Positions 181-18,957 of a stretch of DNA of 64,000 bases are shown here, one piece after another (position 1 is the stretch's first letter; the number at the start of each line of letters is the position of its first letter). The translations under genes and the position numbers were made by a program. This DNA is from Branchiostoma floridae (lineage: Eukaryota > Chordata > Leptocardii > Amphioxiformes > Branchiostomatidae). Where the stretch lies: contig NC_049995.1 in assembly GCF_000003815.2 (NCBI RefSeq), positions 17,642,356 to 17,706,355 on the forward strand, read 5' to 3'. The notes below the pieces were generated by a model. The model made no database searches. It saw only the letters and a list, made by a program, of their open reading frames with translations, and had not been told where the DNA came from.

Positions 181-555
181 TAGGGGGGATGCTAGGGGTG
201 GATCCACATAGATCAAGTTTCTGAACTTCTATTCAGCCTGTCAAACCAGTTTCATTGCGTACAACTTCTTCGGGGGATAGAGCCTTATTGACACAAGTTT
301 GTGAAGCTCTCTCTCTCTTAGCCTGATTAAATCTCGCTTATAGCAGCCCGCCAAACATCCGCCGGCCCTCTATTTACTGGTTTCCATGGTAATGTGGGCT
401 CAACCTTAATCCTGGCCTACCATTGGTGTTGAAACATTCCACAACAGTTTCCTCAGCTTATAGCTAGTGGAGCACAAACTCCGCGGGAGGGGCCAGTTAC
501 AGCCCTGGACAGCGGAGTTTGTGTTACACAGACTATCTCTCTCTGTTCATTCTGT
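181..555. repeat. Intronic or intergenic stretch with a dispersed repeat
   Basis: No exon is recognised here. Two blocks, about 320-351 and 487-533, match in opposite orientation a continuous sequence at about 32,236-32,325; in this copy they are separated by about 135 bp of other sequence. This marks a dispersed repeat whose two copies differ by an insertion or deletion. The last block leads directly into the 105-bp array. Confidence 0.6.
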
Positions 556-1846
556 TATATCTGACTCTTTCCCTCCTTCCATCCAGTGAACAACACTCTG
601 CCTATCTAGCCATGGTGGGTTCCCTGGTCAGTATAGTGCTGGTGGTGCTGTTTATTCCTTTATATGTGACTCTTTCCTTCCCTCTCTCCAGTGAACAACA
701 CTCTGCCTACCTGGCCATGGCGGGTTCCCTGGTCAGTATAGTGCTGGTGGTGCTGTTTATTCCTTTATATGTGACTCTTTCCCTCTCTCCCTCCAGTGAA
801 CAACACTCTGCATACCTAGCCATGGCGGGTTCCCTGGTCAGTATAGTACTGGTGGTGCTGTTTATTCCTTTATATGTGACTCTTTCCCTCCTTCTCTCCA
901 GTGAACAACACTCTGCCTACCTGGCCATGGCGGGTTCCCTGGTCAGTATAGTACTGGTGGTGCTGTTTATTCCTTTATATGTGACTCTTTCCTTCCTTCT
1001 CTCCAGTGAACAACACTCTGCATACCTAGCCATGGCAGGTTCCCTGGTCAGTATAGTACTGGTGGTGCTGTTTATTCCTTTATATGTGACTCTTTCCCTC
1101 CCTCTCTCCAGTGAACAACACTCTGCCTACCTGGCCATGGCAGGTTCCCTGGTAGTATAGAACTGGCGGAGCTGTTTATTCCTTTATATGTGACTCTTTC
1201 CCTCCTTCTCTCCAGTGAACAACACTCTGCCTACCTGGTCATGGCGGGTTCCCTGGTCAGTATAGTACTGGCGGTGCTGTTTATTCCTTTATATGGGACT
1301 CTTTCCTTCCTTCTCTCCAGTGAACAACACTCTGCATACCTAGCCATGGCGGGTTCCCTGGATCAGTATAGTACTGGAGGTGCTGTTTATTCCTTTATAT
1401 GAGACTCTTTCCCTCCCTCTCTCCAGTGAACAACACTCTGCCTACCTGGCCATGGCAGGTTCCCTGGTCAGTATAGTACTGGTGGTGCTGTTTATTCCTT
1501 TATATGTGACTCTTTCCCTCCTTCTCTCCAGTGAACAACACTCTGCCTACCTGGCCATGGCAGGTTCCCTGGTCAGTATAGTACTGGTGGTGCTGTTTAT
1601 TCCTTTATATGTGACTCTTTCCCTCCTTCTCTCCAGTGAACAACACTCTGCCTACCTGGCCATGGCGGGTTCCCTGGTCAGTATAGTTCTGGTGGCGCTG
1701 TTTATTCCTTTATATGTGACTCTTTCCCTCCCTCCCTCCAGTGAACAACACTCAGCCTACCTTGCCATGGCGGGTTCCCTGGTCAGTATAGTACTGGTGG
1801 TGCTGTTTATTCCTTTATATCTGACTCTTTCCCTCCCTCTCTCCAG
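556..1846 (+). repeat. 105-bp minisatellite made of a splice acceptor and exon start
   Basis: Thirteen acceptor copies, with the base before TGAACAAC at 586, 691, 796, 901, 1006, 1111, 1215, 1320, 1426, 1531, 1636, 1741 and 1846. Each unit holds a pyrimidine tract, a CAG acceptor and the first part of the exon (SEQHSAYLAMAG and a hydrophobic stretch). 105 bp equals 35 codons. Only the last copy continues into the rest of the exon and a GTAAGT donor, so the others are acceptor-only duplicates. A one-base deletion near 1,152 and a one-base insertion near 1,361 break frame in copies 6-8, so only the last five acceptors read through in frame. Confidence 0.9.
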
Positions 1847-4800
1847 TGAACAACACTCTGCCTACTTGGCCATGGCAGGTTCCCTGGTCAGTATAGTCCT
1901 GGTGGTGCTGTTTATTCCTTCTAACACCAAGGCTGGGAAAAAGGACTCAGATTCCAAGAAGGAGGGTAAGTTTCAATTCTTACAAATTACTATTACAGTG
2001 CGTCAATAAAGGGTAGACATGCCAGAAAACAGTCACTCATGACAAGCAACGGGACATTACAGGGTTCTAGTCAGTGCATTTTAGCGTAGTGGGCCCCTAC
2101 GCTAAAATTTGTGACCACTACGCTAAAATAAGGGCCACTACGCTAATTTTCAACTAGTGTAGTGGTGTTTTGGTATCATTTGCTTGTTCAACAAATGAAT
2201 GTCTTATCAATGTCTGCACAATGAAAAATGGTGATATGACCCTTAAAACTGACCAGAAAATCCTACAATTTACATGTGATGTTAACAAAGTGCCAACTTT
2301 TAAAAAGTCTACATTTTCAAAGTCTCATCGTGGAAGGGCCAAGACCCCCCTTCCACACCATTCCCACTACGCTAAAATGAAATCCTGGCTAGAACCCTGG
2401 ACATGATTTTGGAAATGTTCAGATGTTTCAGACACTATTCACAGACACTGACTGTCCAGTAAAGACATTTATGATGTCCGAAACAGGGCTTTAGCCAGCT
2501 CGAATTTTTTTTCCGTCAGCTAATTACAATCGTCGCGAAAACCGCAAAAATCAATTAGAAGGACTGAACTGAGACCTTGAAAAACGGGTTTTAATGAGAT
2601 TATCGTATGCGAAAGGGCGCTGACACACATTGTCAACAATCATAACAATAGCAAAACAAACAGTGTGTAGCTTTCCGACCGTGGACAGCGTCCCCAAGCC
2701 GCCTGTAGCTTCCACCAAGAATTTTTGTCCGTCAAGGTTGATGGATTGGTTTGAAAATTTTTCCATCAGACGCAGCAAATTTCCGTCAATTGACGGAAAA
2801 ACGGACGCTGGCTAGACCCCTGGTCCGAAATGTCTGACCATTTCCAGAATCATATCCAGTTGCTTGAGGAACTATGACACGTATTACAGTGAATAGACAT
2901 GCTGTTGCATGATGGGAATGCCCCCTAGTGAACATACAAGGCACCGCACCCATGTATTCAGAAATTTCAGGTTTTCTCTCATCTTTGCAGCTAATAAGAC
3001 AGGCCACACACATTTAGGAGTTGCATGAATGCAATCAACAGTCTTTTGCACCTCTCTACATTTTGATTTAATTTTTCCTTTTCAGATTCTGGTCCATCGA
3101 GTGTGTTTGATGTGAAAGCCATTGCCAAACTCCTTACCATTCCCGTAGCTGCTTATCTTCTTCTGGTAAGTCTCTCTGACAGTATGACATCAACTGTAAT
3201 AATTCTGCTGAGCACCTTAAGACAGAAAAAAAGCAGTGAACCTACTGAGAAGTACTAAATGTAAAGTCTTCATTCAATTCATTCAATCTACATCTACATC
3301 TACGTAATACTGGGCAATGCCCCTCGCGGGACTTTGTGCCCAGGGGAGTGAGGATGCCCTAGCAAACCGGTGGTGGTGAGACAAAAATAGTGAAAAAAAA
3401 AAAAAAAAAAAAGTATTCATTCAACAGACAAAAATAACAGTGCTGTGCTGTACAAGTTGCTAGGGCATAGTTCGGTCTTACAGCTGGGTAGAGCTAGGGT
3501 AGCCATAATACAATGGCTACCCCGGCTTTGAAGTGTGCTACGGAGGTGGTATGTATCAGATTTTCAGGCAGGCTATTCCACTCTATGACTGTCCGGGGGA
3601 AGTAACTTGCCCTGTATGTTTCGGTTTTGCATGTTAAGGTGTGGAAACGTTGGTTGTGACCTCTTGTAATGTTGTTGTTTTGTGTAAGTATGCTGTGGAT
3701 AGGTATTGCAATGAGGTTGTTGACTGCCTTGTACATTAGTGTAAGTCGTGCTTGTTGTCTTCTTTGTGCTAGGGTCGCCCATCCAAGTGATTGTTGTAGT
3801 GATGTATTGCTGGTGGATTGTTTGTAGTTGCCTGTAACAAACCTGGCAGCCCTACGCTGTACTGATTCCAGCTTCTCCTCAAGGCTGTTTGTTTGTGCGT
3901 GTTTTAGTTTGTGGGGGTCCCAGACTGAAGAACAGTATTCTAACTTAGGGCGGACTATGGAAGTGTAAGCCTTAGCTCTTACCTCTTTACTTGCCCCCCT
4001 TAAGTTGCGTCGGACAAACCCCAAGGTGCTGTTGGCTTTGGCTGTAATGTCATTGATATGTGGCTTCCACCTAAGATTGTGGGTGAGAATGACACCTAAG
4101 TACGGATGCTGGCTGTTACAGTTGAGTGGTTCGTTAAACATTGTATACAAAAAATCATGTGAGCTTCTGGACTTGTGGATGTGCAAGATGGAACATTTTT
4201 TTACATTAAAGCGCAACTGCCAAGTGTTAGACTACATACAAAGATTATCTAGGTCAGTTTGGAGGGCATAATGGTCTTCGTCACGGACTATGGGGCGGTA
4301 AACGAGACAGTCATCAGCAAATAGTCTGATTTGGGATGTTATGTCTTTGTTGATATCATTTATGTAAATCAAAAAAAGTAATGGCCCTAGCACCGTTCCC
4401 TGAGGTACTCCGGATCTTACTCTGACAGGACCAGACTTTTCCCCATCGATCACCACTTGTTGCTGACGGTCCAGTAGCCAGTTTTGTACCCAGGTGAGTG
4501 TTCGCCCCCTGATCCCGTGAAAGTGTAACTTATGCAGCATCCTGTGGTGCGGAACGCTGTCGAATGCCTTCGAAAAATCCAAAATAGCCATATCTATTTG
4601 CTGCCCTATGTCAAACCAAGACGTTAGGTCGTGTAGCGTCAGTAATCCCCAAGGTATGCACACTTCAGATATCCAGGTGGTCAAGACATTGTTTGAAAAG
4701 CCTCCATAACACAATTTTTTGTGACAGTCTTACACTTACAGTTCCTACTGGGCATTATGAGAGTTGACTTTAGACTGTGAGGCAATTTACCAATAAAAAC

Positions 4801-7800
4801 ATAATGTATTTGCTTGTCAAATGTTTTCATTTGGAGCTCTTCTAGAATACTAATTGAATCACATGTACATGTGTTTCATTGGATGGATTATTGTATATCT
4901 TGGATTGATATAAGATGAAATATTATTCAAAAGGATACTAAATTTGTACATTTTTTGGTACAGTTGCAAAACTTTTGAATTCTTTTTCATTTATATCTTT
5001 ATTCCTTTCTCCTTACAAACAAACATTGTTGCCCAACTATTATGATATATTATATAAACTATAATCATTAAAGGCTTAGCCATTCACTATGATGATACAT
5101 TAGAAATTTTAAAAATTCTTAATTTTCTCCTGCCCCTCTAAGATGGGAACCATGTTGGGGACCCGCCTGGATATTTTAGTTGGATGGATAAATTCTATAT
5201 CTTGGATTGATAGAAGATGAGATGTTAATTGTATAAATTTTTCTGTTGAAAGTTTTCATTCATCTTCTCACGCCACTCCCAGGTGCGAACCATAGTGGGG
5301 ACCCCCCTGGGGATTTTCCAGTCCATGTTCAGCGTGATAGCCATGGACCGGTTCAACATCGGTCCGGAGGAGAATGGTTACCTCATGTCATATATCGGCA
5401 TGTCTAATATGGTAAGTGTGATATAACATAATATACCACATTACGTCATTCACCCTTCATGGTATTATTACAGCCAGTAGCTGTTTTCCAAGACTTAAAG
5501 CACACAGTCACACAGTAATTTACTATTCAACATTCCATACTCATGTTTAAAATAGACAACATAATATCAGAGTCCATACTCTAAAGGGATGTGCCTTAAA
5601 ACACCAATCCTCACTAGATAGTTTTAAACAACACTTTCAGTTAGGTTACATATACTGGTGTGACAGGTTGTTACTAATAGGTACTAGTATATATTACCAG
5701 CTGCTGCTGTGCCTGTATACATGCATGCTACTGGAAAGGATCGCTGTTCTAAAGACGGACATTAACTTGTGGTCCACTGTGCACAATGCTACTACGAATT
5801 GTTACATGTACATGACACCTGTCTTCTCTGTCATGACCAGATGTTGTGAGTTTGAATCCTGACTATCTTTTTTTCAGGTAATGATGGGTTTAGGAGTTGG
5901 GATCCTAACGAAGCGTTATAACGAAGGCTTACTGCTGAAGTGGGCCATCTACATGTTTACCTTCGGCTACCTGCTCCTGGTGGGTTACAGGATTTTTTTT
6001 TTCTATTTTGCTTTTGGAGAGGCGAAGACAATGTGGCACTGCACTAAGTGACAATGTAGCAACATTGGGGGCACGGCGGGTATCGAACTCAGGACCTCTA
6101 GATTCCAAGCTGAATGCTCTACGTTATTTTTTACAGTTTATTTTTTTAAGAGTTTTGCTCAGGCACTGAGCTACACTCACTGCAGCAGCATCTCTTCTCC
6201 CTTAGTCAGAAACATCATGCTTTGTTCAGTATGACTACCTGACTCAATAGCCAAAGCAGGGGTATACTAGGCTGCTCGGGAAATACCCTTAGGCTACCCC
6301 TATTTAGCCAGATTGCTGTGGAATCCTTTTGATGTGTGTTATCTATGTGTGTATGTTATTATCAGTATGTGGGTAGGCCAACATTGCTGTCTGAAGATGG
6401 ATCCAGTGGTGGAGTGACAAGATACAATGATGATGAGTATGTGCATGGGTAGGGGTTAAGAAAACAAAGGTCAAGTTTGATTATTGTTCTTCCTAGCATC
6501 TTTGTACACTAATGCAGCATTCTGTTTTTGATGTCTTATCTTATTTTGTTTCCTGTCACCAGGCCGGAGCTAACGTGACCTGGCACATCTATGTGACTGT
6601 GATTCCGCTGACGATCGGAGGGACGATCATGAACACTGTCATCAGTAGCACCCTCACTAAGGTGGTGCCACCGGACAGTACAGGTAAACAAACAAACAAA
6701 CAAACAAACACTGTCATCAGTAGAACCCTCACTAAGGTGGTGCCACCGGACAGTACAGGTAAACAAACAAACAAACAAACAAACACTGTCATCAGTAGAA
6801 CCCTCACTAAGGTGGTGCCACCGGACAGTACAGGTAAACAAACAAACAAACAAACAAACAAACACTGTCATCAGTAGCACCCTCACGAAGGTGGTGCCAC
6901 CGGACAGTACAGGTAAACAAACAAACAAACAAACAAACACTGTCATCAGTAGCACCCTCACGAAGGTGGTGCCACCGGACAGTACAGGTAAACAAACAAA
7001 CAAACAAACAAACACTGTCATCAGTAGCACCCTCACGAAGGTGGTGCCACCGGACAGTACAGGTAAACAAACAAACAAACAAACAAACACAACCAGTTAA
7101 TCTCACCTGCTGATGTTTCAGACTTCTTCCTCAGAGCAATGGACCGATCCCGGAGCCCCGCCCCCTGTTCGATCATGTTCTATTTCGAACACCTCCGTCA
7201 AAAACAGCGCTTGTCGGACAGAACTGGCCGCCGCTGCTGTTTAGCTGATAATAACGACTGACTTCGGTTTAGCTCCTTTGACCCTGAAATCCTCTCAGAC
7301 CGGGCCGAAAAAGAATGCGCTGACTTCTTTGTTGAAGGCTACATCCACTGGGTACAGTCTTCTGAGGAGGGGGCTAGTATAGTTGTGGTACGGGCGTTAT
7401 AATTTCCGTCAAAGCGGAAGCGGGAGGCACCGCAAATCTTTACCTTGTTGGTGGGCAGAAGTGTCCGGTTTCTGACGTATGATCGATGCAGGTGAAAACC
7501 AGTGTACATCTATCTGTAACTGGGTTTCTACTGTGTTTGTTGCATGTATAACAGCTGCATGCATTCTCCTGATAAAAGTGAAATCAAGAAGAAAGCAGCT
7601 CAGGCACTCATGGAGAGGGAGCTTGAACTACGCACCAACTAATGGGACACTTCTACAAAGTCTGCCAGTGCAGAGTCCCGTGTCTTTATACATACCCTGC
7701 ACTACACGTGTATACTGCCCACCAACATTGTAATGCTATGCAGTGGCTCTCGCTCCCACAATACCTATACTCGTTGGGTGTAGTCTTCAACAAAGAATTG

Positions 7801-11195: not shown

Positions 11196-14100
11196 TTACG
11201 GTGGTGACTTTTGTTTTTTCTTTTTACTTTTCCGTATGACCTGATCAGTGACAAGAGTGCTGTCGTCATAAGAGTATTTCTTTACTTTGTGTGTCACCGC
11301 AACCACTCTGTCCTCTCGCTGGTCAAAGTGGAAATTTTCACCTTTGTCAGAGAGGGGTTCTCCAAGGCTGACTCCATTCTGTTTTACTTTACATTTTCGG
11401 CAACTCAAGGAGGTCAGATACGTTTCTAAGGTGTCCATAAAGTTTGTAAGGCATGTCATGTTCAACCCTTTATGAGCAATGGAACAATTCACAAGTTTTG
11501 ACATATTCTGCAGATGGTTCCATAATGTCAGTGTTTCCCCAAAGTAAGTACCACACTTAAGAAGAGCTTTCATGGATGGGCTTACACGCGAGCAGTTCCA
11601 AGAAACAAAGGGATTTCCACCGATCTTTTCTATATTTAGACGTTTACTTCCGTAGTCATTTATGGTTTTCAAGAAGTAATCTTTCTTACCTTCAGCTATA
11701 AGCTTTAAACGTGCACTATATATATCGCTCTGCCTAATAGCGTGTTCACGAATGATTTCAAGATGATCTCTACGATAACATAGTAAGTGTAATTGGTTGA
11801 TGACGCCTAGAAAATCCTGCCAAAGACGAACAATTTCTTCACTATCATCAGCACACAGTAACCATGATGAACCTTGTGTTACAAGCTTTTCAAGGTCTAA
11901 GACAGTCTTTATGAACTGATCAGTATCTGGGGGATCTTCTATCCACCATAACAGACTATTGGATGTTGCGATTATGGCATTTAAAACCTTTACTCCATTC
12001 CCATAGGCTTCAATATGAGAGTTGATGGTTAAAGCCGCTGACTGTGACTGATAGCATAAACTCACCAATATCTCTAACAGTTCAGGAAGCCATCTGGGGT
12101 CCAGCCTTTTCCACACGCCGCTAGCCTTAGAATTATTTTCTAGTGACGTGACAGCCTCTGAGAGAGTTGTGACATGACAGTCTGCTAAGGGAAAGGTGGG
12201 AGATTGACCCTGGTCTGCGAATTCTTTGGCTATGATATCATCAAGAAATTCTCGAAGAATATGAGAAAACACACTTAGCTTATGGGAAATCCTTACGTCT
12301 TGGTGTAGCTGTAAGACTGTGGATGGTGGAATAGAATGTGCCTTTTCTGCTTTCGTCTTTTGTGTACTTGTAAGAGACAAAACGCTTTTTAACACTCCCG
12401 GATCCCCCAAGAGATCAGGCCAGTCCTCACGAGCGAATTCCAGAATGTCAAACTCTTTACTCTCTCTGGGCAGCCCCAGCATCACTTCATAGTATCTATT
12501 GGTGCATGAAGACGTATCCATGGAGCGGTAGTACAAGAACAGTACTTTGATTACGACCTTGCTCACTCTTTGTATATCACTGCTGCACAATAGTAGAAAT
12601 GACTGAATGTTCTCCATCTCATTGCAGGAAAACCTTACCGTCTTGTCAGTTGTTTGATCGTTGTACTTAACTTCATCACAACGGTGTTTACCAAGGCCAA
12701 CTAATTCCTTCAACTGTTGGTAACGGTGTTTATGATTAAGTATGGCATCTGCAGCCGTTAGAACCAATCTATTAAGCCCTGCCCAGTACTTTTCTGGCTC
12801 GGCATTCGAGAGCATATTTGGAATAAAAAGATTTTTCAATTTGTCCAATGGCGTTTCAGCAATGTATCTCGAAACACCACAAAAGAAGGATGTGGGCAAA
12901 AGAGAAAAGTCGACGTTGTCCAATTTTCTATTTTGAAGAAGTCTCCCGTAAATTGAATTGATGGCATGATTTTGTAGTGAGTTCTTGACATAATGTTGAT
13001 CACACGCAGCAGCTTCACTAGACGAGGGTTGCATGATTGTTAGCTCCTTTGCCTCCCAATATAGGTTATCAGCTATATCCACGAGCAATTCAACGGGAAC
13101 ATCACCGTTGAACAAACATGGCAACAGGGTGGTATTCAGAAATTTTACATGATCATGAAGGTGAAAGCACAGATCCTCGGTGACATTATGTTTGAATAAC
13201 AGCAAAATTTCAGCATGAAGAAAAAAATAAGCCTCTTCACAAGCTCCCCATCGGCTGAAAAACTCAGCGGACTTATTCAAGAAAGAGGATGAACCTGTGA
13301 CTGAGACATTCAGTTGGTACCTGTCTATATTCAGGGCCAGATAATGTACATGAGCCATCAGGAACTCTGCCTGGATCCTTTTTGTATCATTACTGTGCTT
13401 TAGTAACAGCGTTGAATATTTCATTGCGTTTTCTAGATGTGTGACTCTCGTAGATTCGTTCATGTGTGCCACAACAACCTCCTGTACTATCCTGTTCACA
13501 CTGAAGGCACAAGGTTGGAAGGCATGGCAGGGCGACGCCAGCGAAAATTTCTCCAAGACTGAAACCATTTTCTTCGTATCTAACTTGTCTAACTTGCCAG
13601 AAGTATTAAATAGTCTTCTAAAGCCTTTGCTATCATATTTTGGGCATGGGATACAGTCTGGGCCCATGAAAGATGTCACATCTAAAAGTTTAGCGGCGTT
13701 GCTGGACAGTTGTGACAAGTATTGAAAAGTAATATCAAATACTCGTCTTATCTTTTTGCTAGAGACCTGTTCAACACCCGATTCATCTAGCAAGTCTACC
13801 TTCTCTGTGGCGTTGCCTCCAGTGTATTTATCATGATATTCTTTCACAGAGCAGCCAGTCTCTTCTATGTATGCAAACGCGAACTGCAAAGCCAGAGGGT
13901 GGTGTCCCAGGGATCGGCTCAGAAGTTTGATCTCTGTCCTTTCCTTTTCAATGCTGGGTCTGACCATTTTGTTAAACATTGCCTGGGCCTCAGTTTCACT
14001 AAAAGGAGGAAGATTTACCACTGGAATGCGCTCGTTACCCAGTCTTTGATATTCGTTAGAAGTCAATAGAACATTCATGTTTGCCTTTAACGTGTGAGGC

Positions 14101-15902
14101 AGTAGGGACTCCAGCTCTCCTGTGGTGTTTCTAACTGCCTCGTCAACAACCAATATCCAATCATGTGAACTTGTCAGATACCGTCTAAAGTGCATCTTCA
14201 TATTCTTACAACTCAGATCATCTTTAAGTTGCAAAGAGTCACTAATGTAGGAGCTGTACTGACTGATACTGGCACACAGGTCGCCCTTACTCGCTAACCT
14301 GACCCAGAACACCCCACCAGGGTACCTCTCCGCACGCCTGTGCCCGTATTCGATGGCTACTGACGTCTTCCCGACACCGCCCAGACCCTTGATGAGGCAG
14401 GTCTGGTTCTCCTGAAGACAGGCGTCTATCCTGCTGAAGACGTCTTCTCGTCCTACAAATGACTTGAGACGACGAGGAAAGGCAGCTAAGAAGACTGGTT
14501 CTGCGGGATGATATGTTTTCTGTTTATATATAGATGTATTTACAAGTGAACAGTGTTTAATTAACTAGTTCTGGGTGTTGTATTGCTTGACCGATGTTGA
14601 AACTTTGTTCAATGCCGACGCAAAAATTAGTTTCAACCTCGGTCAGTTGCAAGCAATACACCACCCAGATTTACTTAGTTAAACGCTGTTCAGTATTAGT
14701 CTTAATTAAACTCTGTGAATTCTACTAGGCTGTTGAATGTGCACTGTATTTTTCAAAATAAGAACATGGAAACTCACCATGTGTTCTGGAACCGCAATAA
14801 AGCATGCACATCCATGTACAAATCACGAAACAGGTCACGAGAATGGCCAAGGCTCGTGCTCTGTTCGTTATCCATCTAGTGACATCTGCAAAACACAATT
14901 ATAAAACTAGAGTTCGGCGACCTCATACCTCCATGAAAATTTAGAGCTTTCGTAAATTTCATGCAATTGACTAAGACATTAACATAATTTATGCATGGTG
15001 TTGTTCATCATTGACAAACGTACATATGTCACCATTATAAAATTCCCATTATTAATCATAAAGCGGTTTTGCAATTTTTACATAAATTATGCAAATAAGT
15101 TCCTCATTACCATATTTGGTATCTGCTTATATTCCACCTATCATAATTAACATGTGTTACATTTATTGAAGTCCAGTTATTGAAAACAATGAAATTATAC
15201 AATTTACTCATTGATTATGCAAATTAAGTCCTCATTTGCATAACATGTATATCATTATGAACACCTTTGCCAAAGGTACCCGCATGCCTAACATGATGCC
15301 AATCCGTCAATCCTTTCTGCAGTTATCCTCTTTGGAATGTCTTGATAAAAACGCCCCTGCAGTTCCAAAATTAAATGTTAGGGGGCTGAAACTTGCCCCA
15401 CTTTTCATTACACTGCAAGCTATCTACCAACCAAATTTCAAGACCATATCACTTCCAAGACAAGAGATACATAGAAAAAAACTGCTATGATAGAATATCC
15501 TCATTAATTATGCAAATGTACTTCTATTTTGCATAATTAGTATGTCATTTTGTACAACATTGTCTGAGGTATCTACATACCAAAAGTCATGAAAATCCGT
15601 TGTTCCCTTCTTGAGTAATCGTCTTCAGAAGTTTTTGACAAAAATGCCCCTGCTATCCCAAAACTAGACGCTAGGGGGCCCAAACTTATGTCATTCCTTT
15701 CCTGAGCACAAGAGCTATCTAACAATCAAAAATCGTGACCATAGCATGTTCAGAACACCGAGATAGCAAAACCAGAAGTTGCGCTGCAGTACCAAGGGGA
15801 GCTGTTAGGGGGCCCAAAATCTAATCATTTCCCGCTTTCATCACACACTACCAACACACCAAGTATGAAACCAATCCACCCAGCCGTTCTCGAGTTATCT
15901 TG

Positions 15903-15978
<76 letters not shown>

Positions 15979-17734
15979 GACAAACGCTGGGTAAGATATA
16001 ATCTCCATGACATTTCATGGAGGTAATTACAGTCTACTAGATAGACATTTGTTAGGTCTGGGTGAATTACTGTAGATTACAGTGAATTTAAGTAAATACA
16101 GTGTAGACATTTGTTAGGTCTGGGTGCATGTAGGTTTCAGAGAATAAGCAGGCTAAAGTTCCTCACCTTTGACACTTTGTCCTGTGCCTTTTGCAGCCGG
16201 GTATTGCTCTACTCCAAGTCCATCAACCTTCTCCATTGTCTCCTTCCCAGTCGTCTTCATCTCTTGGCCAGTAGTTTGCAACGAGTGCTGTGCTTTCTCC
16301 GTCCATACATGTAGCTCCTCAGCTGTGTGCCTTTCTTCAATGTCGATAAGAGCCTGTTGCAGAACCTGTAGAGTAGCATTTGTTCCATTTCTTTCTAGCC
16401 ACCTTTCAAGCACTTCCCTGCACTTTTTATCAGGACCTTGCAGTGACTCTGTAGCTCGGATAGCCTCGATCTCACCTCGTTTGAAACCCACTTTCCTGGC
16501 CAAGTCATACCACTTATAGCTCACGTTCTTGATGACTTTGTCGAAATAATCCTCCATGTTAACTGCATGAAACAAGGTATGAAAACCAAAGCATTTTCAG
16601 GATAAATAAGACAACAACAAAAAATAGAGTTCGGCGACCTCATACCTCCATGAAAATTTAGAGCTTTCGTAAATTCCATGCAATTGGCTAAGGCATTAAC
16701 ATAATTTATGCATGGTGTTGTTCAATGTACACATGTCACAAATATAAAATTCCCATTATTAATCATAAAGCGGTTTCGCAATTTTTACATAAATTATGCA
16801 AATAAGTTCCTCATTACCATATTTGGTATCTGCTTATATTCCACCTAAAATGATTAACATGTGTTACATTCATTGAAGTCCAGTTATTGAAAACAATGGA
16901 ATTATACAATTTCCGCATTAATTATGCAAATTAAGTCCTCATTTGCATAACATGTATATCATTATGAACGTCTTTGCCTAAGGTACCCGCATGCCTAATA
17001 TGATGCCAATCCGTCAATCCTTTCTGCAGTTATCCTCTTTGGAATGTCTTGACAAAAATGCCCCTGCAGTTCCAAAATTAAACGTTAGGGGGCTGAAACT
17101 TTCTCCACTTTGCTACCACACTAAAAGCTATCTATCACCTAAATTTCAATACCATATCACGTCTAAGACAAGAGATACATAGAAAAAACTGCTATGATAG
17201 ATTATTCTCATTAATTATGCAAATGTGGTCCTATTTTGCATAATTAGCATGTCATTTTGTACAACATTGTCTGAGGTACCTACATACCAAAAATCATGAA
17301 AGTCCGTTGTTCCCTTCTTGAGTTATAGTCTTCAGAAGTTTTTGACAAAAATGCCCCTGCTATCCCAAAACTGGTCGCTAGGGGGCTCAAACTTATCTCA
17401 TTTATTCCTGAGCACAAGAGCTATCTAACAACCCAAAATCGTGACCATAGCTTCTTCAGAACACGAGATAGCAAACCCGGAAGTTGCACTGCAGTACCAA
17501 GGGAAGCCGCTAGGGGGCCCAAAATCTAATCATTTCCAGCTTTCATCACACACTACCAACACATTAAGTAGCCTCCTTCACCTGCGTCTCTAGGGCCTTG
17601 GCGAAAGTTCGCGATTTTTATCCGGGAATACGACGGGAAAGGAAAATATGCCGCTAGGATCATAGAGACGCCGGTGAAGGAGGCTACACACCAAGTATGA
17701 AACCAATCCACCCAGCCGTTCTTGAGTAATCTTG

Positions 17735-17772
<38 letters not shown>

Positions 17773-18957
17773 CTGGGTAAAATATAACCTCCATGACATT
17801 TCATGGAGGTAAATATAACCTCCATGACATTTCATGGAGGTAAATATAACCTCCATGACATTTCATGGAGATAAATATAAGTCATCATGAATTTTTTACT
17901 CCTTTTGCGTTGACAAGTCGTCTAATTACGTGCTGGTGAAACCAGATTATCATCATCATCATAATTAGCTCAGTGCTTTTTTCGTTCGATTCATACCTTT
18001 CATCAAGGCAGTCCAATGTCTCTCAGTCAATCCGAATCATAACTACTAGAGTTGTGCGACCTCCAGCGCAAATGTGATTTTTTTTTTGTTCCGCACACGC
18101 ATTTACCTTCCGGACGCCTTCCGAGATCCCTTCTCCTTATCTCTCCCCTCACTACTGCGTTCTTCAGACGTTCCCGAGTCTTCAGTAGTTGCTGTACCAG
18201 ATGGTCATACGGGACTTCCTTCAGGCTTTGGACAAAGTCGTCGAAACCATCGTAAGGTAAATCTGTATAGTGGTGGTATTAGAGCAATACATATATTTAA
18301 GAATTAGTAATTTCTACAAATAACCTACGTTATGTAGTGACCAGACATTCGGTCGACAAACAGGGAAATATTAGCCCGGTGCACAGCCCTATTCGACGCA
18401 CCGCCGACAAATCAACCGTCCGCGCCAAACCAGCCATTTGCCCCAAGGTGTTTACTTACATGTAAGGCTGTCAGGTTACAGGCTATCTTAAGATCATCAC
18501 AGGACAAAGTTAGCCACAAGTCTTCAAATTTAGTCAAGATATAGGGACAGACATATATTCCATTATCAAGTTTACCGTCAATGTAAACTCGCAAAATACG
18601 ACATTTGGGTCATCGGAAGAATTAAGAACCGTACAAAATTGACATCTTATCTGACCGCTGCATGACGTAGGCTAAGTTCCTCTGCCTTATGAATTCTAAG
18701 TTACAAATGTTTTAGGTTGTGGCGTATAATGCACGGGTATTGAAAGCGCCCCCAGAGCTTGAAACCTTACCCATGAGCCTGTCCAGCAGCGCCCTTGCCC
18801 CGGAGTGTAGTCCCTCGGCCCTCGTCTTGGCCCGAATGAACCCTGGGTCCCCGTCCCGCCAGCGGACAGTGCTGTACCGCAGGGCCAACCCAGGGTCCAT
18901 GTCACGGGCAATGTCGTCATAGCAGTCCTGCAAGGCCTGACGGTGGAGAGGGTCCAT
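11196..18957 (-). CDS. CARD-DEATH-transmembrane-NB-ARC protein
   Basis: Five coding exons, transcription right to left: 18771-18957, 18107-18262, 16167-16562, 14778-14885 and 11196-14500. They total 4,152 nt, 1,383 residues plus stop. All four junctions are phase 1 and agree. The start ATG at 18,957 lies in GCCACCATGG. Residues 1 to about 100 form a CARD (LLDRLM, then FDDFVQSLKEVPYDHLVQQL). Residues 117 to about 195 form a DEATH domain (WYDLARKVGF, CREVLERWLERNG). Residues 258-277 are hydrophobic (ALAILVTCFVICTWMCMLYC). NB-ARC follows: FVGRED at 297, Walker A GLGGVGKTS at 321-329, Walker B ILVVDEA at 398-404, LLTSN near 427, and GHHPLALQ at 481-488. About 800 mostly helical residues and a basic tail (KSKKKKQK) complete it; no clear TPR, WD40 or LRR was recognised. 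CARD and DEATH domains recruit caspases or kinases through homotypic contacts, and NB-ARC is the nucleotide-dependent oligomerisation module of Apaf-1 and NLR-like proteins, so a signalling platform is inferred. The hydrophobic segment between them is unusual. Exons 2-4 could each be skipped in frame. Confidence 0.85.
14548..14693. mobile_element. Small fold-back MITE
   Basis: Arms of about 60 bp starting GAACAGTGTTTAATTAACTA on the left and ending TAGTTAAACGCTGTTC on the right. They share GTTGTATTGCTTG and GACCGATGTTGAAACT. It lies in the intron just upstream of the NB-ARC exon. Confidence 0.75.
14907..16023. mobile_element. About 1.1-kb repeat, copy A, with internal (CA)n
   Basis: Begins AGAGTTCGGCGACCTCATAC and CTCCATGAAAAT, and ends with a (CA)n tract (about 15,906-15,974) and CATTTCATGGAGGT, so short inverted ends (CTCCATGAAA) are present. 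A second copy in the same orientation occurs at 16,625-17,810 on the other side of the DEATH exon. Open frames inside are not coding. Confidence 0.8.
16625..17880. mobile_element. About 1.1-kb repeat, copy B
   Basis: Near-identical to copy A over most of its length, with a shorter (CA)n at about 17,740-17,768 and a 118-bp insertion at 17,569-17,686. Its right end (AACCTCCATGACATTTCATG) is repeated three times to about 17,872. The two copies flank the DEATH-domain exon in direct orientation. Confidence 0.8.
17569..17686. mobile_element. 118-bp fold-back MITE nested in repeat copy B
   Basis: Ends TAGCCTCCTTCACCTGCGTC and GACGCCGGTGAAGGAGGCTA. It is flanked by an imperfect 9-bp direct repeat, CACATTAAG at 17,560-17,568 and CACACCAAG at 17,687-17,695. 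Copy A has the uninterrupted sequence CACACCAAG at the same place, which serves as the empty site. The 9-bp duplication suggests a Mutator-like source. Confidence 0.85.

What the first reader, a model, noticed from the sequence alone, without database searches (positions are those of the whole stretch)
11196..18957. CARD-DEATH-membrane-NB-ARC protein: a RAIDD-like head on an Apaf-1-like engine
Five exons join in phase into one 1,383-residue protein carrying a CARD, a DEATH domain, a 20-residue hydrophobic segment, a complete NB-ARC (Walker A GLGGVGKTS, Walker B ILVVDEA, GHHPLALQ) and about 800 uncharacterised helical residues. CARD plus DEATH is the arrangement of the adaptor RAIDD/CRADD, and NB-ARC is the Apaf-1/NLR oligomerisation module. 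Finding both in one chain, separated by a hydrophobic anchor, would be a built-in adaptor-plus-scaffold. The motifs are seen; the signalling role is inference.
Basis: partly seen in the sequence, partly recalled or inferred. Interest (0 to 1): 0.85.

Follow-up and report, generated by a model that had tools for sequence, protein, structure and literature searches.

The report
Lancelet receptor with inside-out Apaf-1 module
A lancelet gene joins two cell-death signalling domains, a membrane anchor and an Apaf-1-like motor in one protein; sequence signs suggest the motor lies outside the cytosol, which would make it a membrane receptor rather than a cytosolic scaffold.

Summary
Five exons on the minus strand (18957-11196) splice GT-AG, all phase 1, into 1,383 residues. 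NCBI's Branchiostoma floridae model LOC118404429 uses the same four junctions. DEATH is certain. The CARD is RIG-I-type, 0.3 bit under Pfam's cut-off. NB-ARC is under its cut-off here (over it in several relatives), and the predicted fold is CED-4/Apaf-1.

The reading changes. The gene belongs to a lancelet family: a head, a membrane exon, and an NB-ARC exon of about 1,100 residues. Of 11 other B. floridae loci, 8 have both CARD exons, 2 CARD exon 2 only, 1 HEPN; none shows DEATH. The DEATH exon looks like a recent graft: an 82% twin lies beside a NACHT exon on C12, and direct repeats of about 960 bp bracket it here.

After the membrane segment, N-glycosylation sequons are enriched: 119 against 63 expected in 8 proteins, but 39 against 37 in 10 other lancelet STAND frames. 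Most likely the NB-ARC is lumenal or extracellular and clusters cytosolic CARD-DEATH tails across the membrane. Topology and transcripts need experiments.

The parts
18771..18957 (-). exon 1: start codon and first part of the RIG-I-type CARD (residues 1-62)
   Evidence: splice and frame check; CARD_2 match at residues 1-88; dN/dS 0.10-0.25 against 8 paralogues
18107..18262 (-). exon 2: rest of the CARD and linker
16167..16562 (-). exon 3: DEATH domain and linker, symmetric phase 1-1 cassette, not found at the 11 other family loci; DEATH model match at 16309-16551
   Evidence: Pfam Death 49.4 bits; absence; twin on C12; coordinates
14778..14885 (-). exon 4: membrane-spanning exon, hydrophobic stretch at 14794-14850
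   Evidence: hydropathy; like exon in paralogues; coordinates
13329..14500 (-). first part of exon 5: NB-ARC and winged helix, Walker A at 14361-14387
11199..13328 (-). rest of exon 5: variable C-terminal region, helical where modelled, candidate sensor; stop codon at 11196-11198
   Evidence: open frame; dN/dS 0.28-0.44 beyond codon 480 against 6 paralogues; pLDDT mostly under 50 beyond residue 640 of the exon
16620..17570 (.). copy of a direct repeat in intron 2, 57 nt upstream of exon 3
   Evidence: 91.6% identity over 964 columns with the other copy
14903..15865 (.). copy of the same direct repeat in intron 3, 17 nt upstream of exon 4
12318..13008 (-). GC-AG intron that NCBI's model removes from exon 5, giving the 787-residue form

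Best explanation
One gene encodes a single-pass membrane receptor of a lancelet-expanded family. The N-terminal RIG-I-type CARD and FADD/RIPK1-type DEATH domain lie in the cytosol. The chain crosses the membrane once, and the Apaf-1/CED-4-like NB-ARC, winged helix and variable C-terminal region lie in the ER lumen or outside the cell, N-glycosylated. Shown here by sequence or model: gene structure, predicted fold of the first part, family conservation, sequon enrichment, and the twin of the DEATH exon. Inferred: the side of the membrane, ligand sensing by the variable C-terminal region, STAND-driven clustering, and seeding of CARD and DEATH assemblies that recruit MAVS-, FADD- or RIPK-like partners. 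The DEATH exon was copied from a DEATH-NACHT gene, or from a shared source, into a CARD-TM-NB-ARC gene, adding a second output.
For: Gene: phases and junctions, same junctions in NCBI's model. Family: both CARD exons in 8 of 11 other loci, CARD exon 2 only in 2, HEPN head in 1; DEATH in 0 at E 0.01; a hydrophobic exon before NB-ARC in 10 of 11 by tblastn and in the eleventh by the splice scan. Topology: sequons after the membrane segment 62 against 28.9 expected in 7 lancelet proteins, before it 4 against 3.4; 75 other homologues 183 against 196.8; 8 post-TM sequences 119 against 63.2 (sum of rows); 10 other B. floridae STAND frames 39 against 36.8; N and S/T co-vary only at spacing +2 (odds ratio 1.78; nine other spacings 0.77-1.08); two sequons kept in 8 of 8, 12 invariant cysteines; more K/R on the N side of the span in 7 of 7. 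Fold. Switch residues: the MHD-like His of 27 of 27 other homologues is Asn in 7 of 8 family sequences; the sensor-1 Arg of 27 of 27 is kept in 1 of 8. Graft: twin exon 82% over residues 3-132, next best 60% over the DEATH part; dS 0.26, dN 0.09; NACHT 77.5 bits beside the twin. Precedent: sea cucumber AjNLR-new with extracellular NACHT (PMC13133943, passages).
Against: No transcript or localisation data. Sequon enrichment is not significant alone in 3 of 8 sequences (p 0.12, 0.09, 0.29) and 2 of 7 (p 0.29, 0.16); rows are related, so not independent. Two control frames that are the nearest relatives outside the family, L029 and L030, have a mild excess of their own (7 against 4.5, 8 against 5.1), and the controls were not shown to be cytosolic. 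The window's CARD-DEATH part has 3 sequons against 0.5 expected. A second stretch passes the hydropathy cut in 2 of 7 proteins: P0015, in the repeat-like tail of a truncated model, and P0016, barely, at 1.63. An older model, P0092, joins CARD exon 1 to NB-ARC with no membrane span. Cysteine content does not discriminate: control frames have 2.3%. Walker A is intact, which would suit a cytosolic ATPase equally. C-terminal tails are lysine-rich. Five of the 11 other loci carry a stop, frameshift or truncation.
Confidence: 0.6

Rival explanations
1. A membrane-tethered but fully cytosolic scaffold: the hydrophobic segment is a hairpin or peripheral anchor, and NB-ARC assembles an apoptosome-like ring that presents CARD and DEATH on the same side.
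For: CED-4/Apaf-1 fold, intact Walker A, CARD and DEATH domains act in the cytosol (established knowledge); the sequon evidence rests on related sequences.
Against: A strong 19-residue span with a more basic N flank in 7 of 7 proteins; sequon enrichment and +2 covariation in the part after it, not seen overall in control STAND proteins.
Confidence: 0.25
2. Exon 3, or exons 1-2, belong to another transcript: the real protein is CARD-TM-NB-ARC, with the DEATH exon skipped, an alternative cassette, or a pseudo-exon.
For: None of 11 other loci shows DEATH, nor do the annotated relatives P0013-P0016, P0085 and P0087; exon 3 is symmetric, so skipping keeps the frame; the nearest relative in the tree, P0013, lacks it.
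Against: NCBI's model includes exon 3 with both junctions; the DNA match to the twin covers both splice sites; dN/dS against the twin 0.36, though that could reflect the other copy alone.
Confidence: 0.12
3. A decaying family member without function.
For: Five of 11 other loci are broken or truncated, and NCBI's form is truncated.
Against: The window gene has no stop or frameshift; dN/dS at most 0.44 in every comparison made.
Confidence: 0.05

Closest known systems
Lancelet CARD-TM-NB-ARC relatives (LOC109467236, LOC118431357, C3ZRT4, LOC144866926, LOC144859131, B. lanceolatum Hypp4937), uncharacterised in annotation
   Same: Same CARD, one strong membrane span before the NB-ARC part
   Different: No DEATH domain; several of these models are truncated or, in C3ZRT4, lack most of NB-ARC
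Apaf-1 / CED-4
   Different: RIG-I-type CARD, DEATH and membrane span in between; MHD-like His replaced; no WD40 among the Pfam matches
CRADD/RAIDD
   Same: CARD followed by DEATH
   Different: CARD closest to RIG-I, DEATH closest to FADD and RIPK1; CRADD has no membrane span or NTPase (recalled)
Sea cucumber AjNLR-new (PMC13133943)
   Same: STAND-type NTPase reported outside the cell, signalling part inside (passages)
   Different: NACHT not NB-ARC, Ig not CARD-DEATH, two membrane spans
Amphioxus DEATH-NACHT NLRs (PMC2575513, passages)
   Same: DEATH on a STAND protein; the C12 twin exon lies beside a NACHT exon
   Different: NACHT rather than NB-ARC; in the 3.4 kb held around the twin, the window gene matched by DNA at exon 3 only
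TorsinA
   Same: AAA+ ATPase that is lumenal and a glycoprotein (PMC6606767, PMC7567157, starts of abstracts in a listing)
   Different: Not a STAND receptor, no death-fold domains (recalled)

Membership tests
CARD (Pfam CARD_2, PF16739) | score over the curated cut-off | tested here: not met
   27.9 of 28.2 bits in the full protein, 25.0 alone; relatives P0085 and P0087 also below; P0013-P0015 carry it in the precomputed column; 8 of 8 family CARDs match at E up to 0.01
CARD (RIG-I type) | sequence relation to a solved CARD | tested here: met
   profile A6 against PDB: RIG-I 4.4e-7
Death domain (PF00531) | score over the curated cut-off | tested here: met
   49.4 against 22.6 bits
NB-ARC (PF00931) | score over the curated cut-off | tested here: not met
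   16.7 against 23.5 bits; relatives P0017 25.4 and P0087 32.7 are over it, as are several paralogue loci; so filed as a diverged NB-ARC-like STAND
Apaf-1/CED-4-like STAND NTPase | NB-ARC plus winged-helix fold with Walker A and B | tested here: met
   predicted model and motif columns
Apaf-1/CED-4-like STAND NTPase | sensor-1 Arg and MHD-like His (motif roles recalled) | tested here: not met
   Asn at residues 431 and 618 of the window protein
CRADD/RAIDD | CARD and DEATH both closest to those of CRADD | tested here: not met
Single-pass receptor with outside STAND | C-terminal part glycosylated, outside the cytosol | tested here: inconclusive
   sequence statistics only
Single-pass receptor with outside STAND | surface or ER localisation | not testable with these tools
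   needs cells

The most novel reading that the evidence does not exclude
Lancelets carry a family of membrane receptors whose outside part is an Apaf-1/CED-4-like STAND NTPase with altered switch residues, coupled across the membrane to exchangeable cytosolic heads (CARD, HEPN, DUF4559); in this gene a DEATH exon was recently spliced in, so one outside apoptosome-like ring would drive both a RIG-I-type CARD output and a FADD/RIPK1-type death output.
Probability: 0.5. Interest if true: 0.88.

Novelty: new variant of a known kind. Interest (0 to 1): 0.74.

Why it matters
Apaf-1, CED-4 and NLR engines are textbook cytosolic machines. A glycosylated NB-ARC outside the cytosol, wired to CARD and DEATH tails inside, would show that the STAND clustering engine can act as an ectodomain, as one 2026 report claims for a sea cucumber NACHT protein (PMC13133943). 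The gene also shows what looks like recent exon shuffling: a twin exon, copied splice sites, matching phases and flanking repeats are all visible, so how immune receptors gain new outputs becomes testable.

Tried and rejected
RAIDD-type head: rejected after profile searches. NCBI's 787-residue end as the only form: not favoured, because exon 5 is conserved to its end in relatives. Cysteine content as a topology sign: dropped, since control lancelet STAND frames have nearly as much. Structure of the head (P0002, 7 rows): mean pLDDT 45, not used. Fold of the region beyond residue 640 of exon 5: pLDDT mostly under 50, left open. DEATH in paralogues at a relaxed E-value: 11 loci, best E 0.26, the better ones lying in the CARD exon or out of frame. 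Flanking repeat in paralogue loci: one weak match, in L038. Profile A3 against PDB was dominated by TPR repeats of the bacterial rows and says nothing about the lancelet C-terminus. In one search the P0016 row at sensor 1 is a misalignment across a gap of its model, so I count sensor 1 on the 8-sequence alignment instead. In one search dS beyond codon 480 reaches 2.2, so ratios there are rough. Literature: no paper on an outside NB-ARC or on this architecture seen (listings, apart from passages of PMC2575513 and PMC13133943) or among the 20 listed of 6,580; one search found one paper, the sea cucumber one. Genome-wide counts of the CARD exon and of the intron repeat did not complete.
Full report
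WHAT IS THERE. A database protein, LOC118404429 of Branchiostoma floridae (P0002), is identical for its first 780 residues, through all four junctions, and ends at 787 because its model removes a GC-AG intron, 13008-12318, from exon 5. The window lies on contig C17 of a 513-Mb assembly; its length equals that of the contig listed for P0002.

FAMILY. Exon 5 has at least 11 other loci of close relatives in the same genome (the search is a lower bound), not counting three weak or short matches (C13, C223 and C11:19187498). Upstream of them (10 fetched stretches, read as 11 loci), tblastn finds both CARD exons in 8, CARD exon 2 only in 2 (C8, in broken frame; C19 minus, where the stretch is shared with its neighbour) and a HEPN head in 1 (C12 = LOC118428019; HEPN_DZIP3 104.8 bits); DEATH in 0 of 11 at E 0.01, and nothing convincing at E 50. 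A hydrophobic exon before NB-ARC was found in 10 of 11 by tblastn and in the eleventh by the splice scan. In that scan, limited to exon lengths divisible by three, a GTGAGT donor followed it in 7 of 11; L033 and L041 gave no clean donor; CARD exon 2 ends CAAG|GT in 8 of 11. B. belcheri P0003 has a DUF4559 head (158.7 bits) on the same membrane plus NB-ARC part. P0013-P0016, P0085 and P0087 are CARD, span, NB-ARC without DEATH, P0016 lacking most of NB-ARC; an older model, P0092, also lacks the span. B. lanceolatum P0086 has CARD and span joined to another NTPase with TPR repeats. In a tree of 16 rows the window gene pairs with P0013, support 97/93.

THE DEATH GRAFT. Of 150 scored DEATH matches in the genome (238 candidates) one stands out: C12:3339648-3340052, 82% over residues 3-132, linker included; the next is 60% over the DEATH part only. 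Its DNA matches 82.6% over 500 columns, from 15 nt before exon 3 to 63 nt into intron 3 (window 16577-16104), and a NACHT frame follows it (77.5 bits, cut-off 26.7). Between the two exons dS is 0.26 and dN 0.09; between exon 1 and its paralogues dS is 0.66-0.95, and for exon 5 0.93-1.57 (its first 480 codons 0.60-1.44). So the graft looks younger than the family; which copy came first is not settled. In the window exon 3 is bracketed by two direct repeats, 91.6% over 964 columns, 57 and 17 nt upstream of exons 3 and 4. Related DEATH domains (59-70%) sit on other lancelet proteins, among them a GT4-conflict glycosyltransferase, a FIIND protein, a guanylate-binding protein and NLRs.

WHICH SIDE OF THE MEMBRANE. 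Death-fold domains work in the cytosol (established knowledge). With one span, the rest should be on the other side. Tests: K/R is higher in the N flank in 7 of 7 proteins; sequons after the span 62 against 28.9 expected from shuffles, before it 4 against 3.4; 75 other homologues 183 against 196.8; P0028, which has DUF4559 and no span, 2 against 3.7. In 8 post-membrane sequences 119 against 63.2 (sum of the rows), significant alone in 5 of 8. Ten other B. floridae STAND frames: 39 against 36.8, though the two nearest relatives among them, L029 and L030, have 7 against 4.5 and 8 against 5.1. In the 8-row alignment Asn goes with Ser/Thr only at +2, odds ratio 1.78; nine other spacings lie between 0.77 and 1.08. 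Sequons at N314 and N630 are kept in 8 of 8, and 12 cysteines are invariant. Against: rows are related; P0015 and P0016 are not significant alone and each has a second stretch over the hydropathy cut, one in a repeat-like tail, one at 1.63; the window's own CARD-DEATH part has 3 sequons against 0.5 expected; cysteine content does not discriminate; tails are lysine-rich.

SWITCH RESIDUES (motif roles recalled). Walker A is intact in 7 of 7 lancelet rows. The sensor-1 Arg of 27 of 27 other homologues is kept in 1 of 8 family sequences (B. belcheri); the MHD-like His, 27 of 27, is Asn in 7 of 8 (C11a has His); the residue after the Walker B Asp is Asn in 27 of 27 others and Glu in 5 of 6 filled lancelet rows. 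Nucleotide handling is therefore probably unlike that of its relatives (inference).

MECHANISM. Most likely a membrane receptor: the more variable C-terminal region (dN/dS 0.28-0.44 beyond codon 480 against 0.16-0.28 before it; rough, since dS there reaches 2.2) senses, the NB-ARC clusters, and CARD and DEATH tails seed signalling in the cytosol. All of that beyond anatomy is inference. Prior art: amphioxus domain shuffling in death and immune genes, including DEATH-NACHT and TIR-NB-ARC (PMC2575513, passages); a sea cucumber NACHT protein reported as extracellular (PMC13133943, passages). A lancelet CARD-DEATH-TM-NB-ARC protein was not seen in the listings.

I corrected the sensor-1 count, the repeat distances and the description of the splice scan, added the second hydrophobic stretches, the mild excess in L029 and L030 and the P0092 model, and ran.

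Noticed in passing
window 3494-4729, minus strand: Two open stretches that read like a retrotransposon reverse transcriptase (motif recalled; no family search run).
   Followed up: no
window 468-2009 and 6536-7100: Tandem repeats that give long open frames by repetition alone (read).
   Followed up: no
P0086 (B. lanceolatum, 963 aa): The CARD and span of this family joined to a different NTPase with TPR repeats; either another swap or a fused gene model.
   Followed up: partly
L038 (C12) and P0003 (B. belcheri): Same membrane plus NB-ARC part with HEPN_DZIP3 or DUF4559 heads, so heads are exchanged in this family.
   Followed up: partly
P0088-P0090: DEATH domain joined to a glycosyltransferase with PF20706 (GT4-conflict, confirmed for P0088) in three lancelet annotations: an unusual immune-type pairing.
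   Followed up: partly
G000:C215:481921-714798: A cluster of 14 DEATH matches related to exon 3 within about 233 kb.
   Followed up: no
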